A stretch of 64,000 nucleotides of DNA from Caulobacter hibisci (lineage in GTDB: Bacteria > Pseudomonadota > Alphaproteobacteria > Caulobacterales > Caulobacteraceae): positions 1 through 64,000 of the forward strand of contig NZ_JADWOX010000013.1 in NCBI RefSeq assembly GCF_016135805.1. Reading direction: 5' to 3'. How positions within the stretch are numbered: position 1 is the first letter of the stretch; the number at the start of each line of letters is the position of its first letter. The position numbers and the translations under genes are program-made. Positions 15,103 through 22,017 of the stretch are shown here, in pieces. The notes beneath the pieces were generated by a model. That model saw nothing but the letters and a program-made list of their open reading frames with translations, was not told the DNA's origin and ran no database searches.

Positions 15103-15283
15103 AGTTCCTCCTGGATAGGCAAGACTCCCCCCCGGGGGTCGCCTTTAGAAAATTTTGCGGACGGTGACCCGTTTATGAGCATGGGGTCAAGGCCGCGCCT
15201 CCGAAGCGCGTAAATGTTCTCCTCGCCCAGGCGTCGTCCAGTGCTGCTTGGCGTTCATCCCCAGCCCAGCTAAAGCCGGCGCG

Positions 15284-17728
15284 ATGCTGCCCATTTTTCA
15301 GGCCATTCCCGCGCTCAAAGGCGCCCTGCAGGATCGCGAGACCGCCGTTCTCGTCGCGCCGCCCGGCGCGGGCAAGACCACGGCCGTGCCCTTGGCGCTG
15401 CTGGACGAGTCGTGGGTCGGGGGCGGCAAGATCGTCATGCTGGAGCCCCGGCGCCTGGCCGCCCGCGCCGCCGCCGCGCGCATGGCCCAGACCCTGGGCG
15501 AAAGCGTCGGCGACACGGTGGGTTTCCGCGTGCGCCTGCAGTCGAAGGTGTCGGCCCGCACGCGGGTGGAAGTGGTCACCGAGGGCGTCTTCACACGGAT
15601 GATTCTCGACGATCCGGGCCTGGACGGCGTGGCCTGCGTGATCTTCGACGAGTTCCACGAGCGCAGCCTCGACGCCGACCTGGGCCTGGCCCTGGCGCGT
15701 GATTCCCAGGGGCTGCTGCGCGAGGATTTGAAGATCCTGGTGATGTCGGCCACGCTGGACGGCGCCCGCGTCTCGGCCCTGCTGGGCGATGCGCCGGTGG
15801 TCGAGAGCGAGGGTCGGATGTTCCCGGTCGAGACCCGCTATCTGGGCCGCGACGATCGCCTGCGGCTCGAAGAGCGGGTCGGCCGCGCGGTGGAGCGGGC
15901 GCTGACCGAGGAGACCGGCAGCGTGCTGGTCTTCCTGCCCGGCCAGGGCGAGATCCGCCGGGCCGAAAGCTGGCTGGCCGAGCGCCTGCGCCGGCCCGAC
16001 GTCGACCTGGCCCCGCTCTACGGCGCGCTGGACCCGGCCGAGCAGGACCGCGCCGTGCAGCCCGCCCCGGCCGGCCGCCGCAAGGTGGTGCTGGCCACCT
16101 CGATCGCCGAGACCAGCCTGACCATCGAGGGCGTGCGGGTGGTGATCGACGCGGGCCTCTCGCGGGTGCCGCGCTTCGACCCGTCCAGCGGCCTGACCCG
16201 GCTGGAGACCGTGCGCGTCGCCCGCGCCGCCGCCGACCAGCGCCGGGGCCGGGCCGGCCGCACCGAGCCGGGCGTCTGCTACCGCCTGTGGGACGAGCCG
16301 GAGACCCGGGCCCTGACGCCCTTCGCCCGGCCGGAGATCCTGGAGGCCGACCTGTCGCGCCTCGCCCTGGATCTCGCCCGCTGGGGCGCCAAGGACGCGG
16401 ATGGTCTCGCGTTCCTCGACCCGCCGCCGCGCGCGGCCTTCAGCGAGGCGCGGTCGCTGCTGACCCGCCTGCAGGCCCTGGACGCGGCCGGCGGGCTGAC
16501 GGCCCACGGCAAGGCGCTGTCGAACATGCCGCTGGCCCCGCGTCTGGCCCACATGGTCGCCCGCGCCGCCGCCTCCGGCCAGGCTCACCGCGCTGCCGAG
16601 ATCGCCGCCGTGCTCAGCGAGCAGGGGTTGGGCGGGCGGAGCGTGGATTTGCGCCAGCGGCTGGAGGGCTTCGGCCGGGACCGCACGCCTCGCGCCCGCG
16701 ACGCCCGGGCCCTGGCCGAGCGCTGGTCGCGGCAGGCGGGAAAGCCGAGCGGCGCCGATCCCTTGGACGACGCTTTGCTGCTGGCCGAGGCCTATCCCGA
16801 GCGGGTGGCCCGGGCGCGCGGCAAGCCGGGCGAATACCAGCTGGCCAGCGGCCGCGGCGTCTATCTGGAGCCGACCGACGCCCTGGCCCGCGAGACCTGG
16901 CTGGCGGTGGGCGAACTGGGCGGGGGCGACGCCCGCGACCGCATACTGCTGGCCGCGCCGCTGGACGAGGACGCCTTGCGCGCCGCCTTCGCCGATCGCC
17001 TGGTCGCCGAGGACCGGCTGGAGACCAGCGGCGGCGGCAAGCTGCGCGCTAAGCGCCTGCTGCGCCTGGGCAAGCTGGTGGTCGACGAGAAGATCATCGA
17101 CAAGCCCGACCCCGCCCTGATCGCCGCCGCCCTGGCCGGCCAGGTGCGGGCCGATGGCCTTGCGGCCCTGAGGCTGGGCGAGCGGGGCAGGGGACTGCTC
17201 GACCGGGTGGCCTTCCTGCGCGCCAATGACGGCGAGCTCTGGCCCGACCTGTCGGAAGCGGCCCTGGTGGCGCGGCTGGACGAATGGCTGGAGCCGCTGC
17301 TGGCCGGCCGCTCGTCGCTGGCCAGCCTCGATGAAGGCACGCTGGAAGCGGCGATCAAGACGCTGGTCCCGTGGGACATGCAGGGCAAGATCGAGGCCCA
17401 GGCCCCGGCGCGCTTCACCGCCCCGACCGGCTCCAGCTTCGCCATCGACTATGGCGCGGAAGGCGGTCCCCGCGTCGAGGTGCGGGTGCAGGAGCTGTAC
17501 GGCGTCGCCGAGCACCCGGCCGTCGCCCACGGCAAGGTCCCCCTGACCCTGGCCCTGCTGTCGCCCGCCCACCGCCCGATCCAGATCACCAAGGACCTGC
17601 CGGGCTTCTGGAAGGGCTCCTGGCGCGAGGTGAAGGTCGAGATGAAGGGGCGCTATCCGCGGCATGTGTGGCCGGACGATCCGGCCAGCGCTGCGCCGAC
17701 GACGCGGGCGAAGCCGCGGGGAACGTGA
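15284..17728 (+). CDS. hrpB: ATP-dependent helicase HrpB
   Basis: An 814-residue DEAH-type RNA helicase of the bacterial HrpB family, whose cellular role is poorly defined. The Walker A motif is VAPPGAGKTT (about 24-33), motif II is FDEFHERSLDADLG, motif III MSATLDG, and motif VI QRRGRAGRTEPG. The C-terminal HrpB-specific region ends with DLPGFWKGSWREVKVEMKG and RYPRHVWPDDP. The start at 15284 gives the usual MLPI... opening; a longer in-frame start adds 12 residues of unlike sequence. A second, diverged copy of the last 200 bases lies 650 bases downstream. Confidence 0.93.
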   Translation: MLPIFQAIPALKGALQDRETAVLVAPPGAGKTTAVPLALLDESWVGGGKIVMLEPRRLAARAAAARMAQTLGESVGDTVGFRVRLQSKVSARTRVEVVTEGVFTRMILDDPGLDGVACVIFDEFHERSLDADLGLALARDSQGLLREDLKILVMSATLDGARVSALLGDAPVVESEGRMFPVETRYLGRDDRLRLEERVGRAVERALTEETGSVLVFLPGQGEIRRAESWLAERLRRPDVDLAPLYGALDPAEQDRAVQPAPAGRRKVVLATSIAETSLTIEGVRVVIDAGLSRVPRFDPSSGLTRLETVRVARAAADQRRGRAGRTEPGVCYRLWDEPETRALTPFARPEILEADLSRLALDLARWGAKDADGLAFLDPPPRAAFSEARSLLTRLQALDAAGGLTAHGKALSNMPLAPRLAHMVARAAASGQAHRAAEIAAVLSEQGLGGRSVDLRQRLEGFGRDRTPRARDARALAERWSRQAGKPSGADPLDDALLLAEAYPERVARARGKPGEYQLASGRGVYLEPTDALARETWLAVGELGGGDARDRILLAAPLDEDALRAAFADRLVAEDRLETSGGGKLRAKRLLRLGKLVVDEKIIDKPDPALIAAALAGQVRADGLAALRLGERGRGLLDRVAFLRANDGELWPDLSEAALVARLDEWLEPLLAGRSSLASLDEGTLEAAIKTLVPWDMQGKIEAQAPARFTAPTGSSFAIDYGAEGGPRVEVRVQELYGVAEHPAVAHGKVPLTLALLSPAHRPIQITKDLPGFWKGSWREVKVEMKGRYPRHVWPDDPASAAPTTRAKPRGT

Positions 17729-17770
17729 GGCGACGATCGCGCAGGCCCTTAGATCGGCCTGTAGAACGCT

Positions 17771-17971
17771 CTATTGCGCTTGATCGACGGTCAGCGTCGT
17801 TTTCACGCCAGCCTCCGGAGCGCCGTCCATACGGGCGCGGCGATCGGCTTCCTTTTGCTTGTCCTTCTTGGCTTGATCATGATGCCACTTGATCGAGAAG
17901 AACATGCCGACGCCCAGCACGATGATCTTGAGTGGGAAGAAAACGATAGGAAACCAGTTTTCCCAGTCCAC
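17771..17971 (-). CDS. Small single-span membrane protein
   Basis: A 66-residue protein with one membrane segment near its start (WFPIVFFPLKIIVLGVGMFF) and a charged tail (HHDQAKKDKQKEADRRAR) likely in the cytoplasm. The GTG at 17971 is chosen because GGAG lies seven bases upstream; a TTG at 18076 would make a 101-residue form with an unusual basic N-terminus. No family recognised. It lies between hrpB and its duplicated 3' end. Confidence 0.6.
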   Translation of the reverse strand: MDWENWFPIVFFPLKIIVLGVGMFFSIKWHHDQAKKDKQKEADRRARMDGAPEAGVKTTLTVDQAQ

Positions 17972-18184
17972 GACTTCACTCCACCAAGATTTTCGAAAAA
18001 CGCCGCGTGTCGCTATTCTGAAGCGTGGGCTGTCTATCAATTTTGTCCGTTCAGGTGTCGTGGACAAAGTGTCCAATCGCGCCAGTCAGTCTGGCGCTGG
18101 CTTCCACCTCGGAGCGAGTGCGGGCTGGGCGCTGGAAGGGAACGCTGGAATAGGCCTCGGCGCGCCTCACGGCCCCGCCAGGAA

Positions 18185-18386
18185 CGGCCGTCGCCCACGG
18201 CAAGGCCCACTTGATCCTGGCCCTGCTGTCGCCCGCCCACTGCCCGATCCAGATCACCAAGGACCCTGCCGGGCTTCTGGAAGGGCTCTTGGCGCGAAGT
18301 GAAGGTCGAGATGAAGGGCCGTTACCCGCGGCATGTGTGGCCGGATGATCCGGCGCGCCGCGCGACGACGCGGGCTAAGCCGCGGT
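18185..18386 (+). pseudogene. Diverged, frameshifted copy of the hrpB 3' end
   Basis: About 200 bases match hrpB 17517-17720 closely. The shared text includes CGTCGCCCACGGCAAGG, CCGATCCAGATCACCAAGG and CGGCATGTGTGGCCGGA. Differences are scattered and many are third-position (for example CGCTAT versus CGTTAC in RYPRHVW). One inserted base (CCC for CC near 18264) breaks the frame. There is no start or helicase core, so it cannot be functional. The pattern of silent differences suggests a copy from a related strain or an old duplication rather than a recent local repeat. Confidence 0.85.
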
Positions 18387-18543
18387 GGATTAGGGGGGGG
18401 CTATTGTGGATCGCAGCGTCTGCCATTGAGTGCCTGCGCCTGTATTATATTGTGCTTTATTGCAAAGCACAGGAACGTCGATACCGACGCCGATCTATAT
18501 GCAAATGCCGGCGCAGATCCGACACAAACCGTGTGGAGCAGCT

Positions 18544-19434
18544 ATGGAAGCCCCAGATCCTGATATTACCAAGGTCGCCGGTCAGATCGCCGCTGATACT
18601 GCCAAAGATCTTCGTGGTGCGTTCGAAAGATTGTTTGGCGACGCGTGGAATGAACTCGGGCTATCAATTGCGGATCGCGCGAAACTTCACCGTTTTGAGA
18701 ATCTTGTAAAAATTTTGAGAAAGGTAGAGCGTATCGCTCTTGCCGAGGGTTATGGTCCAGAGCAATTGAAGGCATTGCCGTTTGGCGACGCAATACGCAT
18801 CACTGAAGCTGCATCCCTAGAGGAGGACGACGACGTTCAAGAAATGTGGGCGCGGTTAATAGCGAAAGCTAGTGCGCCTGAAGGAGGCTTTCCCATACAG
18901 AAGGTTTATATAGAACTCCTGAAATCCCTATCAGGCCCCGAAGTGCTGCTCCTCAACCTGATCTGGAGCTTTCGAACGTCAAAATTCGATAATCGGGAGG
19001 AGTTGGTGGCCTTCAACGAGGCAGCCGAAGCGGCGGCGGAAGCCGGGTGGCGAAAAGTGCCGTCGCAGTTACAGTCTGCATCTATACAGAACCTTCAACG
19101 TCTCCGGTGCATTTTCCTGCCTGCTGAGCGCTTATCCGCAAGCGGTCTTGTCGCTAAAATGCCAAATGAGCTGATCGAAAACCGCTTTGGCAATTGGTCC
19201 CTTGTTGATGCGAAAAAGTTCGATGCGTTGCTGACGCGCGTCTCTGAGCAACTCGCTGTGATTGGCGGCTCCAAGGAGCTCTCCACTGCGAGACGTGACG
19301 CCCAATGGGGCTACCATCAATCTAAAGTTCAAGAGCTGAGATACGGGCTTACGTCACTTGGCAGCGCCCTGATGGAGGCATGTAATTCAATTGATGGCGC
19401 AGTCAGCGCTGATCATAATGCGGATGAGGATTAG
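18544..19434 (+). CDS. Abi-alpha (DUF4393)-like protein
   Basis: A 296-residue soluble protein resembling the DUF4393/abortive-infection-alpha family. Visible family features are an N-terminal helix (GAFERLFGDAWNELG), then RFENLVKILRKVERIA and the signature AASLEEDDDVQEMWARLIA. The C-terminal half is less conserved (FPIQKVYIELLKSLSGPEV, then a long mixed region). Relatives are often carried by prophages and islands and have been associated with phage defence, but a role here is inference. GGAG lies five bases before the ATG at 18544; a longer frame from 18430 would begin in unrelated AT-rich sequence. Its lower GC content marks it as foreign. Confidence 0.7.
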   Translation: MEAPDPDITKVAGQIAADTAKDLRGAFERLFGDAWNELGLSIADRAKLHRFENLVKILRKVERIALAEGYGPEQLKALPFGDAIRITEAASLEEDDDVQEMWARLIAKASAPEGGFPIQKVYIELLKSLSGPEVLLLNLIWSFRTSKFDNREELVAFNEAAEAAAEAGWRKVPSQLQSASIQNLQRLRCIFLPAERLSASGLVAKMPNELIENRFGNWSLVDAKKFDALLTRVSEQLAVIGGSKELSTARRDAQWGYHQSKVQELRYGLTSLGSALMEACNSIDGAVSADHNADED

Positions 19435-19509
19435 AGCGCGCTTCCAGGCGATTTTCAGCGAGTATGGGTGCTGCGGGCGGTCTCAATCAAATTATTTACT
19501 AACAAAAGC

Positions 19510-20217
19510 TTAGACACTTGGTGGTGTTTTCGGGTTTCGGGGGCGCTTTTGTTCCGTTTTTTGTAGTTCAGTTTGTTTCTGCCAGTGCCTTTTTAGCGCC
19601 TCATGTTCTGCCGTTCGATCTGCTTGATCGTAGATATCTGCTTTTATACGGCTGGATCCCTGTGCAATACGCTGCCAATCTTCTCGTATCTTCTTGAGAT
19701 GAGTCGATATTTGGATGAGCGGGTCGTTATTTTCCAGTTGAGACATGCCTTCGTAGTGCGAAAAATTATATTTGTACCGAAGGGATTCTGTTTTTATATC
19801 GGTGGGTGCTCGCTTCCATCGAGCTTCAATTATATATTCTAGGCCTTTTATTTTTTCATATTCGCAAAGAAAGCTTGATAGAGACTGTCCGGGCCTGAGG
19901 ACGCTGATTGCTTGAAAAGGTATTGGTTGGTCACCTCGGACTTCTCCGTTGTCTAACGGAGGGTCGAACGAGAGCTCTACATCGTAGGCTGCTGCGTTAC
20001 CTGCGTTCACCACTTTCAGGTCCACATACATCATGGCCCACGCGTTTGGTTCTATAGTCGCGACCACATGGGGCTGGGCCGCTTGATCGGCCATTCGCTC
20101 CGTTTCTTTTGCCAGTACCTTTGTCACGCGCCACAACGCGACTGTTGCCCCTGCCGTTACAAGAGCCATAAGCACTTGAGCCCAGGCTAAGGCATTAGCC
20201 GGTGTAAACCAGTCCAT
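19510..20217 (-). CDS. Membrane-anchored protein of unknown function
   Basis: A 235-residue protein with one N-terminal membrane segment (LAWAQVLMALVTAGATVALW) and a mostly polar remainder. The middle (VDLKVVNAGNAAAYDVELSF) reads like an immunoglobulin-like beta-sandwich. The C-terminal third is charged and helical (KKIREDWQRIAQ and a Lys/Gln/Glu tail). No family recognised. The start at 20217 follows GGGGGAG by about 9 bases; an ATG at 20235 is the alternative. Low GC and convergent orientation to the Abi-alpha-like gene suggest both came with the island. Confidence 0.7.
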   Translation of the reverse strand: MDWFTPANALAWAQVLMALVTAGATVALWRVTKVLAKETERMADQAAQPHVVATIEPNAWAMMYVDLKVVNAGNAAAYDVELSFDPPLDNGEVRGDQPIPFQAISVLRPGQSLSSFLCEYEKIKGLEYIIEARWKRAPTDIKTESLRYKYNFSHYEGMSQLENNDPLIQISTHLKKIREDWQRIAQGSSRIKADIYDQADRTAEHEALKRHWQKQTELQKTEQKRPRNPKTPPSV

Positions 20218-20520
20218 AAGAACGATCTCCCCCATCGCAAGCAGGGCGAGCTATTGGGCCATGTCAATCCAACATCCACAACCGCCAAATTTTGTCGTTC
20301 GAGCCATACTCTGTCGGGAATGACTGGTGTTTCGGTGGCCTTCTCTAAAATGTGGAAAGGCAGGAGGCAGACCCGCCACCTCCCTCTCCCCCGCAACAAA
20401 CCACCCCGCCAGCCTTGCCTTCAACGACACCTGCGGTGCATGAGGAACCCCTGAAACGGCGAGGCCTGCTTCGCCGCCCGCACTAACCGGCCTTCCGGCG
20501 ACGGAGGGAGGATAAGAGAC

Positions 20521-22017
20521 ATGACCGAAGCTGCTTCCAAGACCATCAAGGGTCGCACCGGCGACTGGGAAATCGTGCTGGGCCTCGAGGTCCACGCCCA
20601 GGTGGCCAGCAAGTCCAAACTGTTCTCGGGCGCGGCCGTCGGCTTCGGCGCCGGTCCCAACGAGCAGGTCAGCCTCGTCGACGCGGCCATGCCGGGCATG
20701 CTGCCGGTGCTGAACGGCTTCTGCGTCGAGCAGGCGGTGAAGACGGGCCTGGGCCTGAAGGCGCAGATCAACCTGAAGAGCCGCTTCGACCGCAAGAACT
20801 ACTTCTATCCCGACCTGCCGCAGGGCTATCAGATCAGCCAGTTCGACCAGCCGATCGTCGGCGAGGGCGTGGTCGTGGTCGAGCGCGACGACGGCACGAC
20901 CTTCGACGTCCGCATCGAACGCCTGCACCTGGAGCAGGACGCCGGCAAGTCGCTGCACGACCAGGATCCGAACGCCACCTATGTGGACCTGAACCGCGCG
21001 GGCACGGCGCTGATGGAGATCGTCTCCAAGCCCGACATGCGCACCTCGGAAGAGGCGGCCGCCTACGTCAAGAAGCTGCGCACGATCCTGGTCTATCTGG
21101 GCACCTGCGACGGCGACATGGAGAAGGGCAACCTGCGCGCCGACGTCAACGTCTCGGTCTGCCGCCCCGGCGACTACGAGAAGTTCCGCGAGACCGGCAG
21201 CTTCAAGCACCTGGGCACGCGCTGCGAGATCAAGAACGTCAACTCCTACCGCTACATCCAGCAGGCCATCGAGTATGAAGCCCGTCGGCAGATCGAGATC
21301 CTGGAAGACGGCGGCGTGATCGACCAGGAAACCCGCCTGTTCGACCCGACCAAGGGCGAGACCCGCTCGATGCGGTCGAAGGAAGAGGCGCACGACTATC
21401 GCTACTTCCCCGATCCGGACCTGCTGCCGCTGGTGCTGGACCCGGCCTGGGTGAAGTCGATCGAAGAGACCCTGCCCGAACTGCCGGACGCCAAGAAGCA
21501 GCGTTTGCAGAGCCAGTACGGCCTGTCGGCCTACGACGCCGGCGTGCTGATCATCGAGAGCGACCGCGCCGACTACTTCGAGGCCGCCGCCAAGGGTCGC
21601 GACGCCAAGCTGGTCTCTAACTGGGTGACCAACGAGCTGCTGTCGAAGCTGTCGTCGGGCGGCCACGAGATCGCCAACTCGCCGCTGCCGTCGTCGGACA
21701 TCGCCCAGCTGGTCGAGCTGATTGAGAACGGCACTATCAGCTCCAAGATCGCCAAGGAGGTCTTCGAGCACATGTGGGCCGGCGAGGGCCGTCCCGCCGA
21801 GATCGTCGAGAAGCGCGGCCTGGTGCAGATCAACGACACCGGCGCCATCGAGGCGGCGATCGACGAACTGATCGGCGCCAACCCTGACAAGGCCGCCGCC
21901 GTGAAGGACAAGCCCCAGGCCATCGGCTGGTTCGTCGGCCAGGTCATGAAGGCCACCGGCGGCAAGGCCAATCCGGGCACGGTCAACGACCTGCTGAAGG
22001 CCAAGCTGGGTCTCTGA
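20521..22017 (+). CDS. gatB: Asp/Glu-tRNA amidotransferase subunit B
   Basis: A 498-residue subunit of GatCAB, which converts Glu-tRNA(Gln) and Asp-tRNA(Asn) to the amidated forms. The GatB core starts [20 protein letters not shown] and includes [28 protein letters not shown] and the [17 protein letters not shown] signature. The C-terminal tRNA-binding GatB/Yqey domain ends [21 protein letters not shown] strong GGAGGGAGG lies upstream of the ATG. The gene stands alone here, bounded by the island and a terminator. Confidence 0.97.

What the first reader, a model, noticed from the sequence alone, without database searches (positions are those of the whole stretch)
17500..20240. Low-GC island with a diverged second hrpB 3' end and an Abi-alpha-like gene
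The last 200 bases of hrpB recur at 18185-18386 with scattered silent differences and a one-base frameshift. Just beyond it the base composition drops and an Abi-alpha (DUF4393)-like gene and an orphan membrane-anchored gene appear before gatB. This resembles an element that entered at the 3' end of hrpB by restoring or replacing that end, as islands do at tRNA genes, but here at a protein gene. The silent differences argue for a copy from another strain rather than a recent local duplication. No integrase is present, so the element may be a remnant or moved by homologous recombination. The two-gene content could be an undescribed defence module.
Basis: partly seen in the sequence, partly recalled or inferred. 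Interest (0 to 1): 0.78.

Follow-up and report, generated by a model that had tools for sequence, protein, structure and literature searches.

The report
Caulobacter cargo slot between two genes
Between the housekeeping genes hrpB and gatB, nine related Caulobacter genomes each carry different small inserts, several of them antiviral or toxin-like by family, with no integrase seen, and a broken second hrpB end in this genome is a scar of one such insertion.

Summary
The repeat is real: hrpB 17517-17719 recurs at 18185-18385, 92% identical. It is a decayed, displaced 3' end. Relatives change the reading. hrpB and gatB were found side by side in 9 of 75 same-genus genomes, and all nine intervals (1.1-2.8 kb) hold different DNA, starting within 7 bases of the hrpB stop and ending 120-140 bases before gatB. 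Cargo includes Abi-alpha, retrons XI and VI, HEPN proteins and a TacA/GNAT pair in five; two are suggestive, one matches nothing, one is metabolic. No recombinase family was found in the cargo genes scanned. The piece tied to the restored hrpB end is the 456-base small-gene segment shared with Caulobacter sp. D5; Abi-alpha lies beyond the displaced end, where D5 has a retron. Abi-alpha and the membrane gene share no other genome in two searches of 398: not a module. Best explanation: an integrase-free slot bounded by functional sequence, refilled by recombination through hrpB and gatB; one joint in G033 shows a 7-base microhomology. New member of a known kind (PMC5635113).

The parts
15248..17728 (+). 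hrpB, ATP-dependent helicase; working copy, left flank of the slot (ORF from the first possible start)
   Evidence: ORF; HrpB_C PF08482 E 2.4e-49
17517..17719 (+). 3' end of the working hrpB that recurs downstream
17729..18184 (.). 456-base segment between the two hrpB ends; 87% identical in Caulobacter sp. D5 (bases 43-455); the inserted piece
17771..17971 (-). small gene, GTG start taken from the alignment of relatives, 66 aa; homologues at other places in relatives
18061..18075 (.). palindrome TGGACACTTTGTCCA upstream of the small gene; exact in 14 of the 15 genomes whose small gene was fetched
18185..18385 (+). displaced, decayed hrpB 3' end; shares its upstream junction with D5
18397..20381 (.). 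variable cargo of this genome; match with D5 stops at about 18396 and resumes at about 20382; D5 has retron XI here
18544..19434 (+). Abi-alpha (DUF4393) gene, 296 aa; start chosen by its homologue in G019
   Evidence: PF14337 E 2e-16
19510..20235 (-). gene of family phrog_11802, 241 aa; 48% identical over 75% of its length to a P2-EC53 Z-region protein
20382..20520 (+). conserved gatB leader; right border of the slot
20521..22017 (+). gatB, right flank
   Evidence: GatB_N PF02934 E 2.9e-114

Best explanation
The hrpB-gatB interval is an integrase-free exchange slot for small cargo, often of antiviral type, in a Caulobacter clade. Shown: in the nine genomes where the two genes were found side by side the cargo differs while the borders stay. 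Shown: this genome and D5 share an older insertion (a 456-base small-gene segment) with a working hrpB end in front and a displaced, decaying end behind, and beyond that displaced end they carry different cargo. Inferred: cargo is exchanged by homologous recombination between incoming chromosomal DNA and the resident hrpB end (working or displaced) and the gatB side. The borders lie where function begins (hrpB stop, gatB leader), so what lies between can be lost or replaced. Inferred: new or tandem cargo is sometimes captured with one homologous end and one end joined at a few G+C bases, as fossilised in G033. Inferred and least certain: the DNA arrives in gene transfer agent particles, and the joining is by Ku or by homology-facilitated illegitimate recombination. 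The Abi-alpha gene would act alone, as an abortive-infection protein like that of Enterococcus prophage 6; the membrane gene is a separate item of phage-borne type.
For: Different cargoes: no nucleotide similarity among the nine cargo stretches (shared small-gene segment left out), and as proteins only the two reverse transcriptases match. Families: Abi_alpha; retron XI RT-protease E 6e-185 and retron VI RT E 9e-79 with HTH_VI E 3e-31; HEPN_RiboL-PSP and AbiU2; TacA1 with a GNAT protein. Borders: column identity among the nine falls to background within 4-7 bases after the hrpB stop and 7 bases before the leader anchor. Leader constrained: 94% mean identity over 120 bases, against 63% over the 120 bases after gatB (90% and 49% with gaps counted). 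Locality: no gap over 88 columns in 5.2 kb from the gatB start. Shared insertion: window and D5 align through the segment and the displaced end, then stop, with the same junction. G033 joint: gatB leader runs into the hrpB interior at CCGCCCG, once in the leader and once in the last 300 bases of its hrpB. Phi p 0.004 in hrpB and 0.014 in gatB. Equipment: GTA_TIM and ComEC in 8 of 9, Ku in 9 of 9. Abi-alpha action: PMC6356687.
Against: Recombination is not special to the flanks: a stretch 2.0-3.5 kb from the gatB start gives Phi p 0.004, one at 3.5-5.0 kb p 0.058. The locality control covers one side and 5.2 kb only. No trace of the gatB leader before the displaced end in window or D5 (205 and 824 of 1000 shuffles as good against their own leaders), so the microhomology joint is seen once, in G033. 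Ku is common in the genus (51 of 75), so it does not mark the slot. No two genomes share a cargo, so a transfer is never seen directly. One of nine cargoes (G003: SDR and LysR) has native base composition and no defence match; two (C. radicis 695 DUF4145, sp. 602-2 DUF2971) are only suggestive and one (endophyticus BI) matches no family above cut-off. Enrichment in defence genes over the genome was not computed. No gene was tested.
Confidence: 0.62

Rival explanations
1. Site-specific integration at the hrpB 3' end by a recombinase now lost or acting from elsewhere; the small-gene segment is an element between a restored and a displaced end.
For: Restored and displaced ends on the two sides of the 456-base segment are the arrangement left by integrases in gene 3' ends (recalled, for example icd). 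Borders are sharp.
Against: No recombinase family among the cargo genes scanned in Pfam. Seven of nine genomes have cargo without a full displaced end; one of them, G033, has scrambled pieces. In G033 a joint couples the gatB leader to the hrpB interior at 7 shared bases. The repeat is about 200-240 bases, long for a core site (recalled).
Confidence: 0.12
2. The displaced end is a plain old local duplication with decay, unrelated to cargo entry; cargo turnover is random insertion and deletion in dispensable DNA, bounded by selection on the hrpB stop and the gatB leader.
For: Both displaced copies are closest to the window's hrpB (196/219 and 198/214). The codon-position pattern 4/4/11 fits an old duplication. 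The leader is constrained.
Against: The left limit of the differing cargo in window and D5 is the end of the displaced, non-working hrpB end, where selection on hrpB cannot act. The segment between the copies carries a gene found elsewhere in relatives, which a plain duplication does not explain.
Confidence: 0.2
3. Abi-alpha and the membrane gene are a two-gene defence module that entered together.
For: They are adjacent here and both low in G+C; relatives of each occur in phage or plasmid records, those of Abi-alpha only distantly.
Against: In two searches of 398 order genomes no other genome is in both hit lists: membrane gene in 4 others (one weak, E 2.4e-4), Abi-alpha in 5 others (four weak, E 8e-9 to 5e-4). 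They are convergent with 75 bases between the stops. G019's Abi-alpha has another neighbour.
Confidence: 0.06

Closest known systems
Integrase-free transfer hotspots with recombination at flanking core genes (Oliveira et al. 2017, PMC5635113; abstract and passages seen)
   Same: Fixed core neighbours, different content in each genome, no mobile-element genes; double recombination at flanking core genes proposed.
   Different: Small cargo (1.1-2.8 kb) and readable scars (displaced hrpB ends, one leader-hrpB joint). Extra recombination in the flanks was not shown here.
Core defense hotspots cDHS1 and cDHS2 of Pseudomonas aeruginosa (PMC10250203; passages seen)
   Same: Defence systems between core genes, not obviously one kind of mobile element, transfer through flanks suggested.
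   Different: cDHS1 has a median of 26 kb; here one to three cargo genes per genome, and only nine genomes.
P2/P4 antiviral hotspots (Rousset et al. 2022, PMC9122126; discussion and passages seen)
   Same: A small system at one precise place, different in each genome, exchange mechanism open. The membrane gene is 48% identical to a P2-EC53 Z-region protein.
   Different: Chromosomal, not in a phage and no cos site known here.
Abi-alpha of Enterococcus faecalis V583 prophage 6 (PMC6356687; section 3.2.1 and passages seen)
   Same: Same Pfam family PF14337/DUF4393, acts as a single gene there.
   Different: Not on a prophage here by what was scanned; no phage test.
Homology-facilitated illegitimate recombination (PMC6382021, passages seen; de Vries and Wackernagel 2002 not read)
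   Same: RecA-dependent, one homologous anchor; joining at a few G+C-rich bases is recalled from the 2002 paper, not from the passages.
   Different: Known from transformation experiments; here one old joint in G033, and Ku offers another route.

Membership tests
Integrase-free transfer hotspot between core genes | Same two core genes flank different accessory genes in many genomes | tested here: met
   9 of 9 genomes with hrpB next to gatB, 9 different cargoes
Integrase-free transfer hotspot between core genes | No integrase or other mobility gene in the slot | tested here: met
   No recombinase family among the cargo proteins scanned in Pfam; other short ORFs not scanned
Integrase-free transfer hotspot between core genes | Flanking core genes recombine more than other core genes | tested here: inconclusive
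   Phi p 0.004 and 0.014 in flanks, 0.004 and 0.058 in two downstream controls
Defence hotspot | Cargo enriched in antiviral systems | tested here: inconclusive
   5 of 9 cargoes match defence, Abi, HEPN or toxin-antitoxin families, 2 suggestive, 1 no family, 1 metabolic; genome-wide enrichment not computed
Defence hotspot | Cargo protects against phage | not testable with these tools
   Needs phage challenge
Abi-alpha (PF14337) | Match above the curated cut-off | tested here: met
   61.1 bits, cut-off 29, profile 5-196 of 196; NCBIfam gives no match
Abi-alpha (PF14337) | Infected cells die while few phages are made | not testable with these tools
   Shown for E. faecalis in PMC6356687
Integrase-borne island in a gene 3' end | Restored and displaced ends flank an element that encodes an integrase | tested here: not met
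   The ends flank 456 bases with one small gene and no Pfam recombinase

The most novel reading that the evidence does not exclude
The slot records how integrase-free hotspots gain cargo: DNA from gene transfer agents pairs with hrpB on one side and is joined on the other by microhomology end joining, so that each capture adds a restored hrpB end and pushes the old end inward, after which the displaced end itself serves as a homology arm for later swaps. The hotspot would build its own landing pads without any mobile-element enzyme.
Probability: 0.25. Interest if true: 0.72.

Novelty: new member of a known kind. Interest (0 to 1): 0.46.

Why it matters
How defence genes gather at integrase-free chromosomal hotspots is not settled; the papers seen here support or propose exchange through flanking genes, and I saw no single event dissected in the passages read. 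This slot is small and clean, lies in a genus with a studied gene transfer agent, and keeps joints of past events, so the idea can be tested at the bench. It also gives an address (hrpB-gatB) at which to look for unknown antiviral genes: three of nine cargoes (endophyticus BI, sp. 602-2, C. radicis 695) have no clear function.

Tried and rejected
Structure prediction of the membrane and Abi-alpha proteins from single sequences gave mean pLDDT 39 and 50 and was not used. Viral contig scans with both proteins, a method that finds close relatives only, confirmed none. Rfam gave only matches far below the gathering scores in the interval and in four relatives' loci. The right border as a dispersed repeat: in nine genomes the only strong match outside gatB is the G033 interior copy, the rest weak and short in a capped list. 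A gatB-leader remnant before the displaced end of window or D5: not found. Recombination special to the flanks: not shown. Ku as a mark of the clade: rejected, 51 of 75 in the genus. Paper searches: Caulobacter, retron, anti-phage, hotspot (three of four terms) gave 95 papers, 10 listed, none on this slot by title or abstract start; gatB, hrpB and Caulobacter together gave 0. So absence from print is only weakly tested.
Full report
The observation. The last 200 bases of hrpB recur at 18185-18385, in blocks of 94%, 89% and 96%, 92% overall with E 2.4e-76. The copy has an extra base and two gaps relative to hrpB. Its differences from the front hrpB fall 4/4/11 on codon positions 1/2/3; the three pairs of working hrpB genes compared differ 0/0/15, 1/0/14 and 1/0/12. 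So it is a decaying fragment. The third-position excess does not prove a foreign origin: selection on the front copy alone gives it. G+C falls to 0.45-0.55 between 18400 and 20199.

Relatives. The hrpB end was searched in 75 same-genus genomes; clear second copies beside hrpB occur in the window's genome and G028, and two scrambled pieces in G033. Thirty-nine new loci and one already held were taken, so 40 of the 75 genomes beyond coordinates, counting the window. hrpB is followed by gatB within about 3 kb in nine: the window, G028 (Caulobacter sp. D5), G071 (T5M6), G002 (endophyticus BI), G033 (sp. 602-2), G074, G008 (radicis 695), G001 (endophyticus 774) and G003 (the six names come from matching contig lengths). 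In none of 30 other loci of about 11 kb was gatB found (one further locus and three others were too short). For the other genomes I have only the positions: where both genes are matched on one contig they are at least 29 kb apart, otherwise they are on different contigs or gatB or hrpB was not well matched, so adjacency in fragmented genomes cannot be excluded.

The slot. The interval from hrpB stop to gatB start measures 1,101 to 2,848 bases. After the hrpB stop any two of the nine share at most 7 bases, a G run; G033 differs already in the last hrpB codons. Before gatB they share a leader from about 120-140 bases upstream. It is constrained: 94% mean identity over 120 bases, against 63% for the 120 bases after the gatB stop (90% and 49% with gaps counted). 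The nine cargo stretches, with the small-gene segment of window and D5 left out, show no nucleotide similarity to each other, and only the two reverse transcriptases match as proteins. In 5.2 kb from the gatB start no gap exceeds 88 columns; this is a control on one side only.

The cargo. Window: Abi_alpha and a phrog_11802 gene. D5: retron XI RT-protease. 774: retron VI RT with its HTH gene. T5M6: ParA-like ATPase and HEPN_RiboL-PSP. G074: TacA1 antitoxin, GNAT protein and AbiU2. C. radicis 695: DUF4145, weak PD-T7-4 (E 9.5e-4). 602-2: DUF2971 and a protein without a family. BI: two proteins without a family above cut-off. G003: short-chain dehydrogenase and LysR regulator, G+C 0.68, no defence match. 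That is 5 of 9 with clear defence, Abi, HEPN or toxin-antitoxin families, 2 suggestive, 1 unknown, 1 metabolic. As a check, gatB gives no PADLOC match and hrpB only a weak helicase one (E 2.9e-4). Enrichment over the genome was not computed.

The displaced end. Window and D5 align from hrpB through the segment 17729-18184 and the displaced end; the match stops at about 18396 and returns at about 20382. The junction before the displaced end is the same in both. Front hrpB stretches of the two are 93.5-94.1% identical, the small-gene segment 87%, and the displaced copies differ at 25 of 209 bases of the repeat. I infer that the insertion is older than the split of the two and that the cargo behind it changed later in at least one. 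The left limit of that change is the end of a non-working hrpB end, which selection on hrpB does not explain; use of that 200-base stretch as a homology arm does. The segment carries a 66-aa gene whose relatives lie at other places in 13 further genomes fetched.

The G033 joint. Inside the G033 slot a fragment of the gatB leader runs into the interior of hrpB at CCGCCCG, which occurs once in the 140-base leader and once in the last 300 bases of its hrpB; a second hrpB fragment follows out of order. This is what one-ended homologous entry with a microhomology joint would leave. The same was sought before the displaced end in window and D5 and not found (205 and 824 of 1000 shuffles as good).

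Means. GTA_TIM and ComEC are found in 8 of 9 genomes, both missing in the fragmented G028. Ku is in 9 of 9 and 51 of 75 of the genus, while among the 14 control genomes only Bacillus subtilis has it, so the C. vibrioides control has none, as the paper on the Caulobacter gene transfer agent says of C. crescentus (PMC9632790, passages). That paper gives fragments of 8.3 kb that recombine into recipients; the slot with flanks would fit in one. These are means, not proof. Phi tests show recombination in hrpB and gatB (p 0.004, 0.014) but also in a downstream control (p 0.004; another 0.058).

Not a pair. In 398 order genomes per search the membrane gene has matches in 4 others and Abi-alpha in 5 others, none shared. 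The Abi-alpha protein of G019 is 60% identical and stands with another neighbour. The membrane protein is 48% identical, over 75% of its length, to a putative lysogenic conversion protein in the Z region of P2-EC53, between annotated inverted repeats, and to a gene of phage R18C between tail-fibre and tail-sheath genes. I take it as phage-borne cargo of unknown action.

Place among known things. Integrase-free hotspots with recombining flanks are described (PMC5635113, abstract and passages), as are core defence hotspots (PMC10250203, passages) and phage hotspots (PMC9122126, passages and discussion). This is a new member with small cargo and readable scars. The two paper searches aimed at this slot listed nothing on it (10 of 95 listed, none found).

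Noticed in passing
17771-17971 (-), palindrome at 18061-18075; L110-L130: The small gene (about 45-68 codons, core WFPxxFFPxKIxVLGxGMFFSIKWHxDQ) occurs once per genome yet in at least six different surroundings in the 15 Caulobacter genomes compared, with the palindrome TGGACACTTTGTCCA exact upstream in 14 of 15. DNA search: 17 of 75 genus genomes, two of these only 35-38 bases; protein search: 8 of 398 order genomes, all of this genus. A wandering small gene with a kept operator-like site.
   Followed up: partly
L042-L048, L050, L052, L058, L068 after the hrpB stop: In several other Caulobacter genomes hrpB is followed by G+C-rich palindromes of the GGGGGAGG...CCTCCCCC kind, perhaps a dispersed intergenic repeat.
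   Followed up: no
L035, about 1596-1781 in hrpB orientation: G033 keeps a gatB-leader piece and two hrpB pieces in swapped order inside its slot; the second piece begins near the hrpB position where the displaced end of D5 begins.
   Followed up: partly
L032 hrpB 3' end: The last 90 bases of D5's working hrpB are 86% identical to the window's, against 90-97% in the ten bins before, and closer to radicis (93%) and G003 (92%).
   Followed up: no
G000:C3, C4, C46 and eight relatives: The nine slot genomes have 1-3 Ku matches each; the other genomes of the genus mostly have one or none.
   Followed up: no
L077 452-1453: A 333-codon gene, not scanned, precedes the Abi-alpha gene of G019.
   Followed up: no
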